Origin: Actinomycetota bacterium
GTDB lineage: Bacteria > Actinomycetota > Thermoleophilia > Solirubrobacterales > Solirubrobacteraceae
Assembly: GCA_009699865.1 (NCBI GenBank)
Contig: WLNJ01000007.1
Span: 1 to 64,000 of the forward strand
Direction: 5' to 3'
Length of the DNA stretch: 64,000 bases
Shown one piece after another: positions 7,704 through 41,707 of the stretch; position 1 is the stretch's first letter; each line of letters opens with the position of its first letter. Below the pieces are notes generated by a model that was given only the letters and a program-made list of their open reading frames with translations, had not been told where the DNA came from and made no database searches. The position numbers and the translations under genes were made by a program.

Positions 7704-8045
7704 TCAGTCAGACTTTTTGGCGGGACCGGAGTCGCTGCCTTTGGACTCTGACTTCTTTGGGGAAGCCTTTTCCGAGCTTGAGCTTGAATCGCTCGACTTA
7801 GAAGTCGTGGAACCAGAATCAGTCGATGTGGCGCTCGAATCCTTCTTGGCCTTCTCGCGAGCGCGGCTCTTAGTTCCATAGTCCGTGTTGTAGAAGCCCT
7901 TCCCCTTGAAGTGCACCGCGGGGGCGAAGAGAATCCGTTGCGCTGGTGCGCCACATTCTTGGCACTCAGTCAGTGGATCTTCAGCCATCCGCTGAATGAC
8001 CTCAAACTGATGGCCCTTCTCACACTTGTATTCATAGACGGGCAT
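7704..8045 (-). CDS. FmdB-family zinc-ribbon protein
   Basis: A protein of 113 residues. The N-terminal half is the FmdB/CxxC_CXXC_SSSS regulatory-type zinc ribbon: MPVYEYKCEKGHQFE, then the second knuckle CQECGAPAQRIL, then FKGKGFYNTDYG. The C-terminal half is low-complexity Ser/Lys/Asp (polyserine stretches), as is common in actinomycete members. The start at 8045 rather than 8075 gives the conserved MPxYEYxC beginning. It converges with the LCP gene with a 6-bp gap. Its function in the family is unknown. Confidence 0.88.
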   Translation of the reverse strand: MPVYEYKCEKGHQFEVIQRMAEDPLTECQECGAPAQRILFAPAVHFKGKGFYNTDYGTKSRAREKAKKDSSATSTDSGSTTSKSSDSSSSSEKASPKKSESKGSDSGPAKKSD

Positions 8046-8115
8046 TGGTCCGCGAGTATAGGCGGGCCCGGGCAATCACATGGACTCAGCGACTATGTTC
8101 CCAAAGGCTTCCACG

Positions 8116-33051: not shown

Positions 33052-33858
33052 CTAGGAGGCGTGGTAAGTCTTCTTCTTGAGAACGTAAGGGCAACCGTGG
33101 GCGAGGGTGATTCCCTTGCCGCCCGGTGTGAGCTTGACCTTGGTCGAGCTTGCGACGCTCAGGTTGAATGGGACTCCCTGCTGACCCTCTCCATCGCTGA
33201 CATTGGCCATCAGCTTGGGAAGCTGAAGGAGTGCCTTGCATGGGTTGGCGTCGACATGGATGGTGCCCGTGATCTTGTTTCCGGCCTTGGCAGGAATGAT
33301 CTTCTTGCCGCTGTTGGCTGGGAACAGCTTGTCTGATGGGAACAGCTCAGTCAGAGCGACATAGTCACTACCTGGCTTAGCGAACAGACCTGAGACGGTG
33401 GCTGCTGAGTAGGCGTATGGCGATATGTCAGTCCCGGCTCCAGCGCGTGTGTAAAGCGAGGTGGCACTGGAAAGCGAGCAGCCAATTGCGTTACTTGGGA
33501 TCTCGCCATTGCAGCTGATCGTCTGGAACGAACTTGCTGCGGAGGACCCGTCTGGGTTCAGTACAAATGGCTCAGTGTCGAACCCAACAATGTTGCGTGT
33601 TACTGAGAAGATCGAGTATCCGTTGACTGCACCCGGGTAGGTAACTGTCTTGGTTACATCGGCTCCGTCTACATAAGTAGTGGTGAAGTCATTGCAGGTG
33701 ATTTCGTAGGTCAGCTCATAAGTGGAAACGTTTGTAACCGTCGCCTTACCTGAGCAGTCGGGTGCGTAGTTCTGGGCTGCAGCGGCCGGAGAGGCAGCTA
33801 CGACCAGACCGACGAGCAGGGCCGCCGTGGTAGTTGCGAATGTTGAGCGAAGTTGCAC
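33052..33858 (-). CDS. Secreted protein of unknown function, candidate Pho-regulon member
   Basis: A 268-aa protein with a clear signal peptide (hydrophobic stretch LLVGLVVAASPAAAA, cleavage near residue 28). The mature part is rich in Ser/Thr/Val and beta-strand-like, with six or more cysteines in pairs (PDCSGK, ITCND, SCNGE, GCSL, NPCK, HGCP), which suggests extracellular disulfides. No family is recognised. It follows the zinc-ribbon cluster, but an 11-bp-period TTCAC repeat upstream gives it a likely separate phosphate-controlled promoter. Confidence 0.75.
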   Translation of the reverse strand: MQLRSTFATTTAALLVGLVVAASPAAAAQNYAPDCSGKATVTNVSTYELTYEITCNDFTTTYVDGADVTKTVTYPGAVNGYSIFSVTRNIVGFDTEPFVLNPDGSSAASSFQTISCNGEIPSNAIGCSLSSATSLYTRAGAGTDISPYAYSAATVSGLFAKPGSDYVALTELFPSDKLFPANSGKKIIPAKAGNKITGTIHVDANPCKALLQLPKLMANVSDGEGQQGVPFNLSVASSTKVKLTPGGKGITLAHGCPYVLKKKTYHAS

Positions 33859-33908: not shown

Positions 33909-33961
33909 AGTCTCGCGGGGAACTCCCCTCACGGTGTGAACCAGCCGTGACCCGCTGGTAA
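33909..33961 (-). promoter_or_regulatory. Candidate Pho box and -10 of the secreted-protein gene
   Basis: Read on the minus strand, GGTCACGGCTG and GTTCACACCGT are adjacent 11-bp units with TCAC at the same register (plus-strand GTGA at 33936 and 33947). A weaker unit with TTAC (plus-strand GTAA at 33958) precedes them. A GAGACT hexamer (33909-33914) lies 22 bp from the nearest core, the same distance as in the pstS and regulator promoters. Confidence 0.55.
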
Positions 33962-33972
33962 AAGAACCGAGC

Positions 33973-34464: not shown

Positions 34465-36075
34465 CTATGGGACCGTCACGGGACGGGGATCAAGCTTTTT
34501 CGTGAAGAAGGTGCTCGGGAATAGAACGGGTCGGTAACCAAGGCTTGCTTCGGGGTTGCTTCGGCCTAGGAACGGCCCGAGGTTCGAGGAGGGATCCTTG
34601 ATGCTGCCGTAACCCAGCTCGGCCTCGATCGTCAAGAGAAGGTCGTACGGCGCGTAACTGGCGTTGCTGGACTTCCCGCTCTTTACCAGCGGCGACAGCA
34701 GGAGTAGCCCGGTGGGCGTGTCCGCCGTATCCCCGGATGCTGGTTGATCAAAACCAAGCGCGACCATGCCGCCACTGGTGTATGGGCTTGACTTCATCAG
34801 TACCCCGGAGACTGATGACGACAGGAAGGCGTTCAGCGCGGCAGGCCCGCCATCGGTGGTTCCATCTGGACACTTGACCGCTACTAATCCGCGGCAGCGT
34901 GAAGGAATGATGAATGTCACTGGGGGTAGGCAGGCTGTCCGGTCATCGAGGCTCGACGCCTGCTCGCAGACAGCCTTGTTGGCATGGTCAGCCTTGATGT
35001 CATCCGCCAACCGTTCAAGGGGACGGATTTCCTGAGCACAGTCGAACCCCGTGGCGAACTTCGTCAGCCAGAGGAACGGGTTGTCTCTGGGGTCCGGAGC
35101 TCCCGCAGTAGGAGGCGTGAGCGCGACACCATCAGCTGGGGGTGTGCACAGACCTGAGTCATCTGGCCAGCCAGATGTCGGCTTAGTCGCCCCGGTCTCT
35201 AAATAGATCCGTGTCTTCTCGCCAGCTGCACCGGCCACATCGCTAGCAATGTCGCCAACCCCGCGGGGATAGATGCAACCGTCGCCCGTAACCGTGTTCC
35301 CCGTCATAAAATTCGACGGCGGTTCAGGAACTGGCGAGGGGGTGTCACACCCCGTGGGGTTAGATGTCGCTGCGTTCGGAGCTTGCCCGGTGATAAGCGC
35401 GAGCCTGTTTGCGAGTCCTGACACTGATGGTTGGCGGTATCCCTTCAGAAGGAAGCCCTTCTTGACCAGCGAGGCAGGCAATGCCTGCCCTGGAGCTCCA
35501 CCTGGCAAAAGCACGACCATCACATGGCCAATGCTGGGGTTGGCTGGCGGCGTGGGTGGCTCTACAGGCGTTGGAGTAACCGCTGGTGGCGGGGTAACCA
35601 CTGTGGGTATCGCCGGGGGGACATCGGCGACGGGCGTGTCGGCAACTGCTGGTTCTGCGGCGGGCCCGGTTGCCTGTGCGCCAGCAGCCTGGACGATCAC
35701 GACTCGCTGACCCGAAGCGAGCGTGTCACTGACTGGAGGCCCAAATGCCGAGCCGATAATCGCGCCAACCGCTAAAAGCGCGAGCCCCGCAGAGGCAGCG
35801 GGCTTGGTCGCAAACGCCGTCGCGAGCGCGTTGGCACCTGTCAGTGCTGACTTGCCTTCACTCGCCGAATGGGCGAGCGCCATCGGCGGTGTCCCACCAA
35901 ACTGGGCGGCTCCAGCAGCAGCGACAGCAAGCGCTGCCAAGACCGGCCCCGATGGAACCCGCTGGGTTGCCCTGCGGACCCCACAGTTGAGGCAGTACCT
36001 CTGGTCGTGAGCAAGCGCCGTACCGCAGCAGCGGCAGGGCTCAAACTGGTCATTGGTTGACGGCTCTTGCGGCAT
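34465..36075 (-). CDS. Membrane zinc-ribbon protein with a diverged phosphoesterase-like exterior domain
   Basis: A 536-aa protein. It has an N-terminal zinc ribbon (C14, C17, C28, C31), a membrane helix at about 94-113 and a Pro/Thr-rich linker (141-181). A 350-residue domain follows that resembles the PF04185 phosphoesterase/acid-phosphatase family: HVMVVLLPGG at 184-193, PSVSG at 216-220, RDNPFLWL, FIIPSRC and YDLLLTIE near the end. In that family the first motif usually has a metal-binding Glu-Asn, here Pro-Gly-Gly, and the late Asp-Glu is Asp443-Gln444. It may therefore be catalytically altered or inactive. This homology is by eye. Confidence 0.72.
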   Translation of the reverse strand: MPQEPSTNDQFEPCRCCGTALAHDQRYCLNCGVRRATQRVPSGPVLAALAVAAAGAAQFGGTPPMALAHSASEGKSALTGANALATAFATKPAASAGLALLAVGAIIGSAFGPPVSDTLASGQRVVIVQAAGAQATGPAAEPAVADTPVADVPPAIPTVVTPPPAVTPTPVEPPTPPANPSIGHVMVVLLPGGAPGQALPASLVKKGFLLKGYRQPSVSGLANRLALITGQAPNAATSNPTGCDTPSPVPEPPSNFMTGNTVTGDGCIYPRGVGDIASDVAGAAGEKTRIYLETGATKPTSGWPDDSGLCTPPADGVALTPPTAGAPDPRDNPFLWLTKFATGFDCAQEIRPLERLADDIKADHANKAVCEQASSLDDRTACLPPVTFIIPSRCRGLVAVKCPDGTTDGGPAALNAFLSSSVSGVLMKSSPYTSGGMVALGFDQPASGDTADTPTGLLLLSPLVKSGKSSNASYAPYDLLLTIEAELGYGSIKDPSSNLGPFLGRSNPEASLGYRPVLFPSTFFTKKLDPRPVTVP

Positions 36076-36095
36076 GGCTGTTTAGAGGTGGGGAA

Positions 36096-36716
36096 CTAGT
36101 TGCCCCAGGTCTGAGCCCCGCCACCACCAGCAGGCGCCTTGTGGTCAATTGGCGGAGGAGTCCCGGGGGTCGAGATCGTCTTTGGCAGCTTGGCCAGCTT
36201 CTTCCCGCATGCGGTTGGCGTGAGACCCTTGCAGTCCGTCGCAGAAGCCACCGCAGCACTGCTCAACACCTTGGCGCCCTTTTGGACCGCTGACGGCGCG
36301 GCTCCGGAGCCCTTCTTGGCTGCCTTGGACCCGGCGGCGCCGGTTGCGCCCGCAGCAGTCCCGTCAGTTCCAGTAGCACCGACGGTTACGACCTGCGGTG
36401 CCGATGAGGCAACCTGCTGGCTCCCGCCTGCTGACCGACCTACAAGTACGCCGGTACCCAGGAAGAGAACCGAAAGGCAGACAATTGCCGTCGCAAGTGC
36501 TGGCGTGATGGCCTGCTTGCCTCCCGAGGCCGCTGTGTCCGTGGCCACCGTCTGAGGGGAGAATGGCACGCCCTTTTCGGCCCGGCGCGACCCGCACGAA
36601 AGGCAGTACCTCTGATCCTCAGCCACCGCCGCCGAGCAATTCCGGCACTGCGCCACGGCCGTAACGTTGCTGACTGCTGCAAATGGCTGGGTTATTGAGC
36701 TGGCTGACGTGTGCAT
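36096..36716 (-). CDS. Single-pass membrane zinc-ribbon protein
   Basis: A 206-aa protein: a zinc ribbon with cysteines 24, 27, 38 and 41 (CRNCSAAVAEDQRYCLSCG), a transmembrane helix at residues 72-93 and a Gly/Ala/Thr-rich outer segment ending in a Pro/Gly tail. Its ribbon closely resembles that of the next gene (DQRYCLxCGxRR in both), so the two are probably related by duplication. It lies between the lipoprotein and phosphoesterase-like genes in the pst operon. Function unknown. Confidence 0.8.
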   Translation of the reverse strand: MHTSASSITQPFAAVSNVTAVAQCRNCSAAVAEDQRYCLSCGSRRAEKGVPFSPQTVATDTAASGGKQAITPALATAIVCLSVLFLGTGVLVGRSAGGSQQVASSAPQVVTVGATGTDGTAAGATGAAGSKAAKKGSGAAPSAVQKGAKVLSSAAVASATDCKGLTPTACGKKLAKLPKTISTPGTPPPIDHKAPAGGGGAQTWGN

Positions 36717-36726
36717 TGTCGACTCC

Positions 36727-37470
36727 TTATTTGGATAGATCGGTTAATGGGACAAAGTTGGTGATGGCTCCCTTGCGAGGGTCAGCCCCTACGTAATAGA
36801 CGGCAAAGCCTTGTGGCTTTCCCTTGCCTTTCGGACCCAGTTTCTCGATGACCGAGCGGCCGGCTGCGACAACGCGGCCGCCCTGCCGGGCTACTGAGAA
36901 CACAACCAGTCGGTTCTGTTCAAAAGGAGAGTTGTTGCTTGCCTTCCCCCGGAGAGCGATGCCGCTTACGGGGTCAGCGAAGAAGACCTTCTTCAAGAGG
37001 GTGGGGTCAGCCGGTACAGACTTGTCAGCCTTGCCGAGGCCGATTCGGATCTTGGACCGGCGTGGAAACCCTCCGGTAACTTGGTCATCTACCCAATCGA
37101 ATGTCTGGCCTGGCCTGATAATCGGGATCTGTGTGAGCGTTGCGTCAGTGCCGTACGGCGTGTTTGTGTAGAACGCCTTGCTTCCCCTGTCGTAGCTGTA
37201 GAGAGCAATTGGGACATCAACGAGTGCGGTCTTAGCTGTGCTCTTGATGGTCACGACGACCGCATTCCTGTCAGTCCCACGGAGTGGCGTTATTGACAGA
37301 ATCTGCAGCCGCTTGTCGACCTTGGCTATCACCATTCCTCGAGATTGAATCTTCAGCTTCTTGGCAGCGATGGCCGCCTTCCGCGCGCTCTTGTCTTGGC
37401 TGCTTTCGCATGCGGCCAGAGAAATCGAGAGGGATGCAACTCCTAGGAGAACTGCGGCTCTTCTAATCAA
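36727..37470 (-). CDS. Lipoprotein translationally coupled to pstB
   Basis: A 247-aa protein. Signal peptide with lipobox LAAC, lipidated cysteine at residue 21. The mature protein is basic and beta-rich, with an Ig-like/DUF4352-like feel (AVVVTIKSTAKTALVDVPIALYSYD, IIRPGQTFDWVDD). It sits in the place where phoU usually follows pstB, and its ATG overlaps the pstB stop by 4 bp. This argues for a role outside the membrane linked to phosphate uptake. No family is recognised with confidence. Confidence 0.83.
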   Translation of the reverse strand: MIRRAAVLLGVASLSISLAACESSQDKSARKAAIAAKKLKIQSRGMVIAKVDKRLQILSITPLRGTDRNAVVVTIKSTAKTALVDVPIALYSYDRGSKAFYTNTPYGTDATLTQIPIIRPGQTFDWVDDQVTGGFPRRSKIRIGLGKADKSVPADPTLLKKVFFADPVSGIALRGKASNNSPFEQNRLVVFSVARQGGRVVAAGRSVIEKLGPKGKGKPQGFAVYYVGADPRKGAITNFVPLTDLSK

Positions 37471-38357
37471 CCGAACACGCCGCCCACATAGTTCTGTGTC
37501 CGCTCAGCGCGCGGAGCGTTGAATACCTGCTCAACCGTCCCGTACTCAACGAGCTCACCTAGGTACATGAAGGCGACGTTGTCCCCAACTCGGTGGGCCT
37601 GCTGAAGGTTGTGGGTCACAATCACGATCGCAACCTTCTCGCGGAGCCTCGTGATCAACTCCTCAATGATCTCTGTGGACTTGGGATCCAGTGCCGAGCA
37701 CGGCTCGTCCATCAGCAGTACCTCTGGCTTGGAAGCAAGCGCGCGCGCGATGCAGAGCCGTTGCTGCTGACCACCCGAGAGTCGGAGTGCAGGGTGGTCA
37801 AGGTTGTCGCCAACCTCATCCCATAGCCCTGCATCCTCAAGGGCCTCTCGAACCAATGGGGCGAGAGCCGACTTACTTGGCCTGCGGGCCGCCTGCTCTC
37901 TGATGGCGTAAGCGACATTGTCGAAGATGCTCATTGGGAATGGGTTCGGTTGCTGGAACACCATCGACACCCGGCGACGCAGATCCGTTGCCTCCAGTGC
38001 ATGAATGTCATCTCCATTGAGGGTGATTGACCCGGTGGCGACTGCTGTGTCGGTCAACTCAGTCAGTCGGTTCAGTGACCGTAGGAGCGTCGTCTTGCCG
38101 CAGCCAGAGGGACCGATCAGCGCGAGCACCTCCCCCTCTCGGACTGGCAGTGTCACATTCCTGACGGCAGGCTTCGTGCCATACGCGATGGAGAGATCAT
38201 CAATCCGCATGCGTTCAACCCTGTTGCTGCTGCCCGGCGCAACGGCCGCGGCTATGGCATCCGCCGCACCAAGCGTGTCGTGCCGAGGATCGACCACCTT
38301 CGGGGCGCGGCTTGGATCAATCCGTTTGATTGGCGGGAGTGGCGTGGGCGAGTTCAT
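37467..38357 (-). CDS. pstB: Phosphate ABC transporter ATP-binding protein
   Basis: A 296-aa ATPase energising PstCA. Walker A is GPSGCGKTT (residues 82-90), the Q-loop is in VFQQPNPFP, the signature is LSGGQQQR and Walker B is VLLMDEPCSALD, all in the PstB pattern. The first 50 residues are an extra Pro/Ala-rich extension, so MRIDDLSIAYG at residue 50 is an alternative start. Neighbouring genes overlap at both ends by 4 bp. Confidence 0.96.
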   Translation of the reverse strand: MNSPTPLPPIKRIDPSRAPKVVDPRHDTLGAADAIAAAVAPGSSNRVERMRIDDLSIAYGTKPAVRNVTLPVREGEVLALIGPSGCGKTTLLRSLNRLTELTDTAVATGSITLNGDDIHALEATDLRRRVSMVFQQPNPFPMSIFDNVAYAIREQAARRPSKSALAPLVREALEDAGLWDEVGDNLDHPALRLSGGQQQRLCIARALASKPEVLLMDEPCSALDPKSTEIIEELITRLREKVAIVIVTHNLQQAHRVGDNVAFMYLGELVEYGTVEQVFNAPRAERTQNYVGGVFG

Positions 38358-39313
38358 ACGATCTCCTTCTTGGAGCGACGGGAGAGGATGTCAATCCCGA
38401 AGTTGAGGGCAAGGACGAGTAGAAGCAGCACGAACGCGGCGGCATAGGCCTTCTGCGGGGCATTCCCCTCGCCAGCAGGAGAGTTGTTGTAGACGTAGGA
38501 GGTCAGGGTGCTCCCGGTTCCCCGCAGGGTGCTGACGATCGGAGCGGACCCAACCTTCTCAATCTGCATCGTTGCGCCGAGCAGGATCACGACAATTGCC
38601 GTGTCCCCTGCGATCCGGCCCATCCCGAGCGCCGTGCCGGTCAAGATGCCAGGGCGCGCAGTGGGTATTAGTACCTTGCGGATTGTCGACCACTTGGTCT
38701 TGCCCAATGCGTAGGAGGCCTCACGTACTTGAGCCGGGACCTGCTGGAGGGCCTCGCGCGTTGAGGTGAAGATCAGCGGGAGTGCGATCAGCGACATCAT
38801 CGCTCCGGCGGTGAGGAATGAGCGACCAGCGACAGCACCGCCGAGTGCCCTGAAGGACATGAAAGAGAAGATTCCGTTGCTGAACAGAAGGAGCCCGAAG
38901 ATCCCGAGAACGATGCTCGGGGTTCCCGCTACAACTTCGATTCCGGATTCCACTGCTCGGGCAAGCCGCGTTGGGCGGCCGTATTCCACTATCCAAATCG
39001 CTGTTGCGACACCGAGCGGGATCGCGATGATTGTGCCGACCAGAGTAAGAATGACGGTGCCAAGCAGAGGGGCTAGAAATCCGCCTGTCTGGCTTTGGTC
39101 GCTGCCAACGGCCGGGTTGGAGAAGATCAGGTCCAGGCTGACGTACTGAAGGCCCTTATTGAGCATGAACAGAATCAAGCCTGCGGCCACTAAGCACAGC
39201 CCAATACCAACCGCCCAGCAGGAGAAGTAAGCAATGCGGTCAGGTAGAGGCCACGACTTAACCGTGTCCTTACCTCGACGGTGAACCACCTTGGGTTGAG
39301 TTGAAGTGCTCAC
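38354..39313 (-). CDS. pstA: Phosphate ABC transporter permease PstA
   Basis: A 319-aa inner-membrane permease with six hydrophobic segments. The EAA-like cytoplasmic loop is EASYALGKTKWSTIRKVLIP, preceded by PLIFTSTREALQQVP. The start overlaps pstC and the stop overlaps pstB, each by 4 bp. It pairs with PstC to form the phosphate channel. Confidence 0.95.
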   Translation of the reverse strand: MSTSTQPKVVHRRGKDTVKSWPLPDRIAYFSCWAVGIGLCLVAAGLILFMLNKGLQYVSLDLIFSNPAVGSDQSQTGGFLAPLLGTVILTLVGTIIAIPLGVATAIWIVEYGRPTRLARAVESGIEVVAGTPSIVLGIFGLLLFSNGIFSFMSFRALGGAVAGRSFLTAGAMMSLIALPLIFTSTREALQQVPAQVREASYALGKTKWSTIRKVLIPTARPGILTGTALGMGRIAGDTAIVVILLGATMQIEKVGSAPIVSTLRGTGSTLTSYVYNNSPAGEGNAPQKAYAAAFVLLLLVLALNFGIDILSRRSKKEIV

Positions 39314-40320
39314 AGCCTGACCCCGTACTTCCGGAGTGGTCGCTTGGCGAGGGTGCCACCCAGCGAGAGCATCAAGCTTGCGAAGAGCAACACCGCTGCC
39401 ATGGCGTAGATGGTCTGACCAAAGGGCTTGACCGAGAGTCCTTCAGCGTTGTCAACGATTGTGGCCGCATATGGTCGGAGTGGCTCGAAGACGAAAGTGA
39501 TGCCGTCAAGTGGGTTTGGAGCGAATCCGACTGATCCGGAGACCATCGCGAGCATGATCCCCTCGCCGATGGCGCGGGCGGCAGCGATGACAGCTGCGGC
39601 GATAATCGCCGGCCGCGCGGATCGAACGACGACAGTCCACATGACCCTCCAGCGGTTGGCGCCCAAGGCCAGGGCCCCTTCCTTCCAGCCGTTTGGAACG
39701 GCGCGCAAAGCGTCAGCGATGATCGCGATCATGATCGGCGTGATCATCAGCGTCAGGATCACCACAGCAACCCCTAGTGACGCGCCTGAGAGCTGGACGA
39801 CGAAGGTGACGGAGTTCTTCCGACCGTCGCCGATCAGGTGGTTGCCCACGAACGGTACGAGGACGAGGATCCCGATCAGTCCATAGATAACTGAGGGAAC
39901 AGCCGCGAGCAGCCGAACCACTGGGCTCACGACGCGCTTGACGCTTGGAGGTGCAAACTCGACGATGAACACGGCGGCGAGAGTCGATACGACAATCCCG
40001 ATTGCCACGGAGACAATGGTCAGGAGCGCTGTCGCGTAGAGGATCGGCCAAGTCCTGATCGTGTAGTCCCACTTCGCCGGGTTGGCAGGGGAGTTGAAAA
40101 TGGCAGCGAGTTGGTCGTCAACGTTTCCACCCCAGCCGAACCACATTGGTCCGTTGTGTGAGAACGATGGCCAGGCCTTGAGAAGAACAAACAGGCACAT
40201 GGCCGTGATTAGGACCAGTACAAGCGACGACAGCGCGCCGAGCGATCGCTCGGCGCGCCTCTCGCTTCTCGCCGCGGAGGACTGAGGCACTGAGGCCTTG
40301 CTGTCCCCCGGGTAATTCAA
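39310..40320 (-). CDS. pstC: Phosphate ABC transporter permease PstC
   Basis: A 336-aa permease with six hydrophobic helices and the loop EGALALGANRWRVMWTVVV. VIYGLIGILVLVPF and AIGEGIMLAMVSGS are typical of PstC. It starts directly after the pstS stop codon and overlaps pstA by 4 bp. Confidence 0.95.
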   Translation of the reverse strand: MNYPGDSKASVPQSSAARSERRAERSLGALSSLVLVLITAMCLFVLLKAWPSFSHNGPMWFGWGGNVDDQLAAIFNSPANPAKWDYTIRTWPILYATALLTIVSVAIGIVVSTLAAVFIVEFAPPSVKRVVSPVVRLLAAVPSVIYGLIGILVLVPFVGNHLIGDGRKNSVTFVVQLSGASLGVAVVILTLMITPIMIAIIADALRAVPNGWKEGALALGANRWRVMWTVVVRSARPAIIAAAVIAAARAIGEGIMLAMVSGSVGFAPNPLDGITFVFEPLRPYAATIVDNAEGLSVKPFGQTIYAMAAVLLFASLMLSLGGTLAKRPLRKYGVRL

Positions 40321-41136
40321 CTAGACCAGCGGTACCCATCCAGCAGCAACGATCTTCTTTGCGGCTGTGCTTGTCTGGACCCAGCGGATGAATGTGCTTG
40401 TGATGCCGGTTGGGGCTCCACGCGTGACCATCCAGAAGTTACGGACTGCCGAGTAGGCGCCTGACTTTGCGTTGGTGAGGGTGCACGCTACGCCCTGGTA
40501 CTGAAGGGGCTTAATTCCCCCCACGAAGTCAAACGATACGTAGCCGATTCCGTTCGGGTCACTCTTCACTGAGCTCTGAATCAGACCGTTGCTGGCCTTC
40601 TGAGCCGCGCTATTGCTGACCGTCGATGAGCCCATGAAGAGCTTCAGGAATGCGTCTTGGGTTCCTGATGCGGCGGTGCGCACATACAGATTGATTGAAC
40701 CGGTCTTGCCTGACCCTGGGATATCGGACCAGCTGCGGGTGCTACCGCTGAAGATGGCCTGTACCTGAGCTGTAGTGAGGTTGGAAGCACCGTTGCTCTT
40801 GTTCACTGCTACGCAGAGTGCGTCACGGGCAATCTTGTTCCATGTAAGTCCACCGGAATCTGACGACTTGAGATCTCGGGAAGAGTTTCCGATGGTGACA
40901 CGACCAGCTGAGACATCGGATATGCCGACGTCGGAGCCGCCCTGGTACTGCTTGAAGGAAACCTTGCCCTTGCCTAGGCTTGAGGCGAGGAACGCAGGGA
41001 AGAGCTTTGACGTGAGTGGGGCCACTGATGTGGAACCGCTGAGCGTGATGATTGGCTTTGCCGAAGCTGCTGCTGGAGCCACAACCATTGCGGCTACTGC
41101 TGCAACTGCTGCGAGTGTGATGCGACTGCGGGACAT
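40321..41136 (-). CDS. pstS: Phosphate-binding protein PstS (no lipobox)
   Basis: A 271-aa secreted binding protein. Signal peptide to about residue 26 (VAAVAAMVVAPAAASA) followed by ITLSGSTSVAPLTSKLFPAF. GSTSVAP and the later GGSDVGISDVSAG and RTAASGTQDAFLKLF match the phosphate pocket of PstS. No cysteine follows the hydrophobic core, so it is not a lipoprotein, unlike most Gram-positive PstS. The ATG at 41136 has AAAGGGG upstream. First gene of the operon and controlled by a Pho-box-like repeat. Confidence 0.94.
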   Translation of the reverse strand: MSRSRITLAAVAAVAAMVVAPAAASAKPIITLSGSTSVAPLTSKLFPAFLASSLGKGKVSFKQYQGGSDVGISDVSAGRVTIGNSSRDLKSSDSGGLTWNKIARDALCVAVNKSNGASNLTTAQVQAIFSGSTRSWSDIPGSGKTGSINLYVRTAASGTQDAFLKLFMGSSTVSNSAAQKASNGLIQSSVKSDPNGIGYVSFDFVGGIKPLQYQGVACTLTNAKSGAYSAVRNFWMVTRGAPTGITSTFIRWVQTSTAAKKIVAAGWVPLV

Positions 41137-41191: not shown

Positions 41192-41246
41192 AGACTCGCC
41201 GGTCTAGGGCTCTCTCTTGTGAAGGAGTCGTGTTGCCCCTGTGAAA
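41192..41246 (-). promoter_or_regulatory. Candidate Pho box and -10 of the pst operon
   Basis: On the plus strand GTGA (41219), GTGT (41230) and GTGA (41241) occur at exact 11-bp spacing, which reads as TTCAC-type direct repeats toward pstS. GAGTCT (41192-41197) is 22 bp from the nearest core and is proposed as the -10 element. The layout matches the PhoP/PhoB box of direct 11-bp repeats. No such repeat is seen in the rest of this spacer. Confidence 0.68.
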
Positions 41247-41270: not shown

Positions 41271-41633
41271 TTACTGCTGTCCCCCATCGGTTACCTCTGG
41301 AGACAGGCGGTAGCCAATACCGAAGTGAGTGTGCACGAATGTCCATTCGGGCGCGATTGCTCCCAACTTCTGTCGGATTCGCTTGACGTGGACGTCAACG
41401 GCTCGGTCGCGGTAAGGCATACGGCCTCCCCACACTCGCCCGTAGACGTCCTCGCGTGTGATGACACGGTCCGGCCGCTCCGTCAGAGCTTCCAATACTT
41501 CGAACTCCCTCACGGTCAGTGAGGCACGGACTCCCGAGACAAGCGCCTCACGGTCCCCAAGCCTGAGTTCAAGTGGTCCGAGGGAGAGAGTGTCGTCTTG
41601 GAGGGTCGGGGTTGTGGCGGCTGCGTGGTTCAC
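41271..41633 (-). CDS. Single-domain PhoB/OmpR-type DNA-binding protein (no receiver)
   Basis: A 120-aa protein. Residues 16-112 form one OmpR/PhoB-type winged helix: LTVREFEVLEALTERPDRVITREDVYGRVWG, then the recognition helix DRAVDVHVKRIRQKL and the wing VHTHFGIGYRL. The usual N-terminal receiver domain with its phosphorylated Asp is absent; upstream is only a regulatory region. The start is GTG, and a -10-like TAGTTT ends 8 nt before it with no ribosome-binding site, so it is probably leaderless. It is 134 bp upstream of pstS and likely regulates it. Confidence 0.88.
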   Translation of the reverse strand: MNHAAATTPTLQDDTLSLGPLELRLGDREALVSGVRASLTVREFEVLEALTERPDRVITREDVYGRVWGGRMPYRDRAVDVHVKRIRQKLGAIAPEWTFVHTHFGIGYRLSPEVTDGGQQ

Positions 41634-41641
41634 GGAGCCGA

Positions 41642-41707
41642 AAACTACGCCGACCTCGATGGCCTCTCGTGAAAGACCGGTGACGCAGTGGTGAAAAGAA
41701 TGTGAAG
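41642..41707 (-). promoter_or_regulatory. Four-unit Pho box and -10 of the regulator gene
   Basis: Plus-strand units CTCTCGTGAAA, GACCGGTGACG, CAGTGGTGAAA and AGAATGTGAAG (41664-41707) are adjacent 11-mers with GTGA in the same register, at 41669, 41680, 41691 and 41702. A TAGTTT on the minus strand (41642-41647) is 22 bp from the last core, and the expected -35 falls on the last repeat. This is the strongest repeat set of the three promoters and suggests autoregulation. Confidence 0.75.

What the first reader, a model, noticed from the sequence alone, without database searches (positions are those of the whole stretch)
41664..41707. Four adjacent 11-bp repeats with GTGA core before the receiver-less regulator
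GTGA occurs at 41669, 41680, 41691 and 41702, exactly 11 bp apart, with partly conserved flanks (GTGAAA or GTGACG). This is the classic architecture of PhoP/PhoB boxes: direct repeats, one helical turn apart. A TAGTTT -10 sits 22 bp from the last core and the -35 falls on that repeat. Four units at the regulator's own promoter suggest autoregulation.
Basis: seen in the sequence. Interest (0 to 1): 0.68.

Follow-up and report, generated by a model that had tools for sequence, protein, structure and literature searches.

The report
Phosphate-type operator before receiver-less regulator
Four DNA repeats spaced 11 bases apart look like a real phosphate-starvation switch site in front of an unusually small regulator gene and a phosphate-uptake operon, and the same pairing of site and small regulator is conserved across a whole family of related bacteria whose phosphate control has, as far as I could find, not been described.

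Summary
In detail: GTGA at 41669/41680/41691/41702, exactly 11 bp apart, is the only exact four-fold 4-mer array (spacings 8-24) in the window. The functional strand is minus: TTCACATTCTT-TTCACCACTGC-GTCACCGGTCT-TTCACGAGAGG, then -10-like TAGTTT starting 26 nt from the start of the last unit, then the GTG of a 120-aa lone winged-helix protein, then pstSCAB.

It is almost certainly a PHO-box-type operator. (i) Cores are conserved in four congeneric species while spacers drift. (ii) 50 of 61 receiver-less relatives found by protein search carry such an array at 11 bp. (iii) The strict triple repeat occurs in 102 of 146 family genomes; a reversed control pattern gives 2 hits in all. (iv) 17 of 20 sampled hits precede lone-wHTH/pst genes. 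(v) The same genome has conserved boxes before pstS1, pstS2 and a secreted-protein gene.

The receiver-less proteins form one clade (98/99 support). They share most DNA-reading residues with the family's full-length Pho regulator, which has an atypical receiver and no neighbouring kinase.

Autoregulation is plausible but not shown; the full-length regulator may be the main or only binder. Known kind of operator, new variant of Pho circuit.

The parts
41696..41706 (-). PHO-type direct repeat unit 1, TTCACATTCTT
   Evidence: core TT(C/A)AC kept in four congeneric species
41685..41695 (-). PHO-type direct repeat unit 2, TTCACCACTGC
   Evidence: core invariant in four species
41674..41684 (-). PHO-type direct repeat unit 3, GTCACCGGTCT
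   Evidence: core invariant in four species
41663..41673 (-). PHO-type direct repeat unit 4, TTCACGAGAGG; overlaps the inferred -35 position
   Evidence: constant 26-nt distance to the -10-like hexamer in relatives
41642..41647 (-). -10-like hexamer TAGTTT (TAACTT, TAACTT, TAACGT in congeners)
   Evidence: A at offset 27 in 55/68 and T at offset 31 in 59/68 aligned promoters
41271..41633 (-). lone winged-helix (OmpR/PhoB-type) DNA-binding protein, 120 aa, no receiver domain; GTG start 9 nt after the end of the -10 hexamer
   Evidence: PF00486 1.8e-20; AlphaFold pLDDT 87 with the PhoB effector-domain fold; clade of receiver-less relatives
41213..41245 (-). second, three-unit box TTCACAGGGGC-AACACGACTCC-TTCACAAGAGA between the regulator and pstS
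   Evidence: cores kept in four species; -10 rule met by GAGTCT
41192..41197 (-). -10-like GAGTCT of the pstS1 box
40321..41136 (-). pstS1, phosphate-binding protein (start ATG 41136 inferred from signal peptide and upstream AAAGGGG)
   Evidence: PF12849, TIGR02136 family
39310..40320 (-). pstC1
   Evidence: TIGR02138
38354..39313 (-). pstA1
   Evidence: TIGR00974 above cut-off
37467..38357 (-). pstB1
   Evidence: TIGR00972
33930..33962 (-). third box in the window, TTTACCAGCGG-GTCACGGCTGG-TTCACACCGTG with GAGACT at the -10 distance, upstream of a 268-aa secreted protein gene (33052-33858)
   Evidence: conserved upstream of the orthologue in three congeners

Best explanation
The four 11-bp repeats are a PHO-box-type operator: tandem binding sites, one per helical turn, for winged-helix DNA-binding domains of the PhoB/PhoP type. 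The units begin about 71, 60, 49 and 38 bp before the probable transcription start, so the last unit covers the -35 position, and bound protein would recruit RNA polymerase to a promoter that has only a -10 (activation, inferred). The operator drives a near-leaderless transcript of the lone winged-helix regulator followed by pstSCAB, and a second conserved box drives pstS itself. The binders are most likely both the full-length Pho response regulator of the genome (RR276, at the end of a second pst-phoU operon) and the lone protein, whose recognition helix and wing are similar; the lone protein would then be a starvation-induced, receiver-free amplifier of the phosphate response (positive autoregulation). 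Shown here: the repeats, their conservation, spacing, promoter geometry, association with phosphate genes, and the single clade of receiver-less proteins. Inferred: who binds, activation rather than repression, phosphate control, and autoregulation.
For: Only exact 4x 4-mer array in the window (simulations). Cores conserved in four species with drifting spacers. 50/61 protein-selected receiver-less genes carry a >=12/15 triple at 11 bp upstream; 0-2 at other spacings except 12 at 22 (the harmonic); none at 11 bp on the reverse strand; 0/88 before full-length RR genes on their own strand. Strict triple in 102/146 family genomes against two control hits in all. Of 20 sampled zero-mismatch hits, 15 directly precede a lone wHTH gene with pst genes behind it, one lies between a lone gene and pst genes (L226), one directly before pst-phoU-RR (L207), two beside DUF47/PhoU_div genes, one unexplained. 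Fixed -10 geometry in 68 promoters, met again by the pstS1 and secreted-gene boxes. Second array before pstS2 in the same genome. Positions equivalent to PhoB R193, V197, R203, T217, Y223 invariant in 79 lone and 99 full proteins. Array kept in several loci where no pst genes follow. Published: PHO boxes are 11-nt direct repeat units, GTTCACC in S. coelicolor (PMC4415409); four core units occur at S. coelicolor pitH2 (PMC7866108); MtbPhoP binds TCACAGC repeats with a strict 4-bp spacer, three or four repeats bind more tightly, and its isolated effector domain still binds as a cooperative dimer (PMC4832192); the isolated PhoB DNA-binding domain binds the pho box 7-fold better than unphosphorylated PhoB and activates transcription (PMC3264566, citing Ellison & McCleary 2000).
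Against: No binding or expression data exist. Eleven of 61 receiver-less genes lack a clear triple (two of these are really full-length genes with broken frames). Two PhoB base-contact residues differ (R219 of the wing is F, T194 is A), so specificity for TTCAC rests on association only. One pst operon (L207) has the box without an adjacent lone regulator, so the box does not need it. The pstS2 array of G000/G143 does not show the same -10 spacing. The lone protein could equally be a repressor or a competitor of the full-length regulator.
Confidence: 0.78

Rival explanations
1. The array is a PHO box used only by the full-length response regulator (RR276-type); the lone protein is a target gene with another role, for example a repressor or a feedback competitor that occupies PHO boxes without responding to phosphate.
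For: A box without an adjacent lone gene exists in front of pst-phoU-RR (L207) and beside DUF47 genes (L218, L221); the full-length regulator's recognition helix is strictly conserved (99/99 F at H198, K at R201), while lone proteins vary there.
Against: The box stays with several lone genes away from pst, and the lone proteins keep the fold and DNA-backbone residues.
Confidence: 0.3
2. The repeats serve another OmpR-type regulator (MtrA-, GlnR- or RegX3-like) and have nothing to do with phosphate.
For: MtrA is the nearest solved structure by sequence, and OmpR-type proteins in general bind direct repeats of about this spacing.
Against: The motif occurs once or twice per genome and nearly always at lone-wHTH/pst/PhoU-type genes.
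Confidence: 0.05
3. Chance repeat in a short intergenic region.
For: None beyond the small size.
Against: Expected 1.3e-5 per strand; conserved in four species and across dozens of genomes.
Confidence: 0.005

Closest known systems
Streptomyces PHO box (PhoP direct repeat units, GTTCACC, 11 nt; four-unit operator of pitH2)
   Same: 11-nt direct units with a TTCAC core, several units in a row, upstream of phosphate transport genes
   Different: Here the first gene is a receiver-less regulator and no phoR-phoP pair is found; the strict triple TTCAC is common in this family but only weakly above control in other Actinomycetota
Mycobacterium tuberculosis PhoP box (TCACAGC with 4-bp spacer)
   Same: TCAC core and 11-bp register; tandem head-to-tail binding; isolated effector domain still binds
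   Different: The core here is (T/G)TCAC with no AGC requirement, and the site heads a regulator-pst operon
E. coli PhoB and its pho box, PDB 1GXP
   Same: Effector-domain fold (Foldseek E 7.6e-07); equivalents of R193, D196, V197, H198, R201, R203, T217, Y223 are kept in the 120-aa protein
   Different: No receiver; wing R219 is F and T194 is A; box core TTCAC instead of TGTCA
Atypical, phosphorylation-independent OmpR/PhoB regulators (ChxR, HP1043; also GlnR)
   Same: Activity would not depend on phosphorylation
   Different: Those keep a receiver domain; here the receiver is absent in a whole clade, alongside a full-length paralogue with an atypical receiver

Membership tests
PHO box (PhoB/PhoP operator) | Direct repeats of 11 nt, two or more units in register | tested here: met
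   Four units at 11 bp
PHO box (PhoB/PhoP operator) | Conserved core per unit resembling the known actinobacterial core GTTCACC | tested here: met
   (T/G)TCAC in all four units and in relatives; literature core from PMC4415409
PHO box (PhoB/PhoP operator) | Overlaps or replaces the -35 of a phosphate-gene promoter | tested here: met
   Fixed 26-nt distance to a -10-like hexamer in front of wHTH-pstSCAB; transcription start not mapped
PHO box (PhoB/PhoP operator) | Rare in the genome and concentrated at phosphate genes | tested here: met
PHO box (PhoB/PhoP operator) | Bound by a phosphorylated PhoB/PhoP and controlled by phosphate | not testable with these tools
   Needs protein and expression data
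OmpR/PhoB-family response regulator (the 120-aa protein) | Winged-helix Trans_reg_C domain | tested here: met
   PF00486 1.8e-20; predicted fold
OmpR/PhoB-family response regulator (the 120-aa protein) | N-terminal receiver domain | tested here: not met
   PF00486 only; stop-to-stop frame is 146 aa; receiver-less clade
Canonical PhoR-PhoP/PhoB two-component system | Dedicated histidine kinase next to the regulator | tested here: not met
   The 5 histidine kinases of this assembly sit beside other OmpR-type regulators; none is near the Pho operon here or in three relatives; the assembly is 92% complete
Canonical PhoR-PhoP/PhoB two-component system | Receiver with complete phosphorylation pocket in the full-length regulator | tested here: inconclusive
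   Acceptor D kept in 94/100 and K in 100/100, but the second acidic residue (PhoB D10) is R, T, S or A in most

The most novel reading that the evidence does not exclude
In this actinobacterial family the phosphate response runs without a PhoR kinase: Pst/PhoU status reaches a full-length regulator with an atypical receiver by another route, and an ancient receiver-less paralogue under its own PHO box sets the gain by its concentration alone, giving a histidine-kinase-free Pho circuit.
Probability: 0.25. Interest if true: 0.8.

Novelty: new variant of a known kind. Interest (0 to 1): 0.57.

Why it matters
It gives a sequence definition of the Pho operator for a large, hardly studied bacterial group, predicts new phosphate-regulon genes, and exposes a conserved circuit in which a DNA-binding domain with no receiver is encoded with the phosphate transporter behind the same operator. 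It makes testable how a phosphate response works with a regulator that cannot be phosphorylated and, apparently, no partner kinase.

Tried and rejected
Chance origin: rejected. Split gene or sequencing error as the cause of receiver loss: rejected for the clade (58 domains in one clade); the two lone-looking domains placed among full-length ones (L091, L170) do have a receiver in a neighbouring frame. The own-genome hit at C2:51980 lies inside the methionine aminopeptidase gene and was discarded. The phylum-wide scan showed only weak enrichment outside the family (32 listed hits, two of them this array itself, against 10 control hits). The looser two-unit pattern with the -10 rule at one mismatch is not specific genome-wide (8 hits against 7 control in G000), so only hits conserved between species were used. 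Literature searches for receiver-less PhoB proteins or a Thermoleophilia Pho regulon gave nothing relevant, within an open-access library only.

Full report
What is there. On the plus strand GTGA occurs at 41669, 41680, 41691 and 41702. No other 4-mer at any spacing from 8 to 24 forms an exact four-copy array in the 64-kb window, and the expectation for this one is about 1.3e-5 per strand. The gene downstream is on the minus strand, so the array should be read TTCACATTCTT TTCACCACTGC GTCACCGGTCT TTCACGAGAGG, followed after 15 nt by TAGTTT (41647-41642) and after a further 8 nt by the GTG start at 41633. The 120-aa product is a PF00486 winged-helix protein and nothing else. Behind it on the same strand come pstS, pstC, pstA and pstB. 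The predicted structure (pLDDT 87) has the OmpR/PhoB effector fold, with the PhoB-pho box complex 1GXP among the matches.

The genome. The window belongs to a 1.7-Mb assembly, 92% complete, whose nearest named relatives are Solirubrobacterales MAGs. It has seven PF00486 genes. A second pst operon on another contig reads pstS2-pstC2-pstA2-pstB2-phoU-DUF47-RR276, where RR276 is a full-length response regulator whose receiver is only weakly recognised by Pfam. A further array (TTCACAGATCT TTCACACCTGA GGCACCCCTTC TTCACCATTCT TTCTC) lies right before pstS2. The lone protein and the RR276 effector domain are 46% identical over 96 residues.

Conservation within the genus. Aligning the promoter with three congeneric genomes, the cores of all four units are kept and the 11-bp register is exact, while in the most distant species (G145) the spacers differ. 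Between the regulator stop and the pstS start there is another three-unit array, TTCACAGGGGC AACACGACTCC TTCACAAGAGA, with its cores kept in the four species. A third box in the window (33930-33962) precedes a 268-aa secreted protein gene and is kept upstream of its orthologue in all three congeners. A scan of the whole window with the triple core plus the -10 rule described below returns exactly these three places; for triples of at least 13/15 that meet the rule the expectation is 0.013 against 3 observed.

Conservation in the family. A protein search of 146 genomes and of the named genome collection gave many relatives. Some are full-length response regulators; others have no receiver. Among 61 distinct receiver-less genes collected by protein similarity only, 50 have an upstream triple with at least 12 of 15 core letters at a spacing of 11. 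No other spacing from 6 to 24 gives more than 2, except 22, which gives 12 as the harmonic; the reverse strand gives none at 11; and 88 full-length genes give none at 11 on their own strand. Searching the other way round, with the DNA pattern only, TTCACN6TTCACN6TTCAC with at most one mismatch occurs in 102 of 146 genomes, usually once or twice, while the reversed pattern occurs twice in total. I then took 20 zero-mismatch hits in list order, leaving out regions already held and repeated identical sites. Fifteen directly precede a lone winged-helix gene that heads pst genes, many running on to phoU and the full-length regulator, often with a DUF47 (PhoU_div) gene divergent on the other side. 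One (L226) lies between a lone gene and pst genes, one (L207) precedes a pst-phoU-regulator operon without an adjacent lone gene, two lie beside a DUF47 gene, and one has no recognised phosphate gene. In the phylum at large the same strict pattern is only mildly above control.

Promoter geometry. Registered on the arrays, 68 promoters of receiver-less genes share a hexamer with A at offset 27 (55/68) and T at offset 31 (59/68) from the first base of the last unit, that is a -10 element without a consensus -35, and the first in-frame start codon is mostly 38-41 nt from that base. The transcripts are therefore probably leaderless or nearly so, and the last unit spans roughly -38 to -33. These 68 were chosen because they have arrays, so the counts describe geometry, not frequency. 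The pstS1 box and the secreted-gene box, which were not used to find the rule, obey it, the pstS1 box in all four species (read). This is the arrangement of activators that overlap the -35; activation is inferred from it.

The protein lineage. In a tree of 100 effector domains plus outgroups, 58 receiver-less domains form one clade with 98/99 support. The two remaining lone-looking domains (L091, L170) sit among full-length ones and have a receiver in an adjacent frame, so they are broken or mis-sequenced full-length genes. Receiver loss thus looks like one old event followed by splitting into at least two paralogous groups; some genomes carry both (for example L040, L129, L134). The domain is short, many inner branches are unresolved, and the clade statement rests on the one starred branch.

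Who binds. In 79 lone and 99 full-length proteins the positions equivalent to PhoB R193, V197, R203, T217 and Y223 are invariant, and D196 is kept in all but one. The full-length ones are nearly uniform (DRSVDVF.RK.R); the window's protein has the PhoB-like H198 and R201. PhoB's T194, V197, R201 and R219 make base contacts (PMC3264566); the last is F here. Both proteins are therefore good candidates. That the array stays upstream of several lone genes with no pst genes behind them argues that it serves the regulator gene itself, which favours feedback control but does not say by which protein. Isolated effector domains can act: the PhoB domain binds the pho box 7-fold better than unphosphorylated PhoB and activates transcription (PMC3264566), and the MtbPhoP effector domain binds direct repeats as a cooperative dimer with Kd 188 nM (PMC4832192). 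By contrast the KdpE and OmpR domains bind but do not activate alone (PMC3264566), so activation by the lone protein cannot be assumed. If it does activate, a lone domain behind a PHO box would be a starvation-induced amplifier.

An open oddity. The full-length regulators keep the acceptor Asp (94/100) and the Lys (100/100), but the second acidic residue is R, T, S or A in most. In this genome five histidine kinases are each next to one of the five other OmpR-type regulators, and none is near the Pho operon here or in three relatives. Incompleteness of the assembly and distant kinases cannot be excluded, so a kinase-free Pho circuit is stated only as the most novel reading.

Verdict. The finding is real and its PhoB/PhoP-box interpretation is well supported by comparison; autoregulation is plausible but unproven. 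The operator type is known; the conserved pairing with a receiver-less regulator at the head of pst operons is a new variant.

Noticed in passing
window 33052-33858 (-), box 33930-33962: A secreted 268-aa protein without Pfam match has a conserved PHO-type box in all four congeneric genomes: a predicted new phosphate-regulon gene.
   Followed up: partly
L116 about 8010-8105 (contig C12), L151, L152, L153: Between the DUF47 gene and the full-length regulator RR276 a two-unit box in reverse orientation (TTGTTAACAAGTCGTTCACACC in G000) is conserved in all four species; its role is unclear.
   Followed up: partly
L116 7179-8009; The full-length Pho regulators of this family have an incomplete acidic pair and no adjacent histidine kinase; in the window's genome every histidine kinase found is already next to another regulator.
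   Followed up: partly
window 34465-37470 (-): Downstream of pstB1 on the same strand lie a lipoprotein-like 247-aa gene overlapping pstB, a 206-aa zinc-ribbon-like protein and a 536-aa protein that resembles secreted phosphoesterases by eye; no significant Pfam match for the 247- and 536-aa proteins.
   Followed up: no
L045 and L046: One MAG contig (JAUJPF010000005.1) carries two near-identical copies of the lone-regulator/pst region about 26 kb apart.
   Followed up: no
L089: A contig labelled 'Chlamydiae bacterium' carries the same full-length Pho regulator and pst genes as Solirubrobacterales; probably misbinned.
   Followed up: no
L091 and L170: Full-length Pho regulator genes with the receiver in a neighbouring frame (frameshift or assembly error).
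   Followed up: yes
promoters listed: Start codons of the receiver-less regulators mostly lie about 6-10 nt after the -10 hexamer, suggesting conserved leaderless transcripts.
   Followed up: partly
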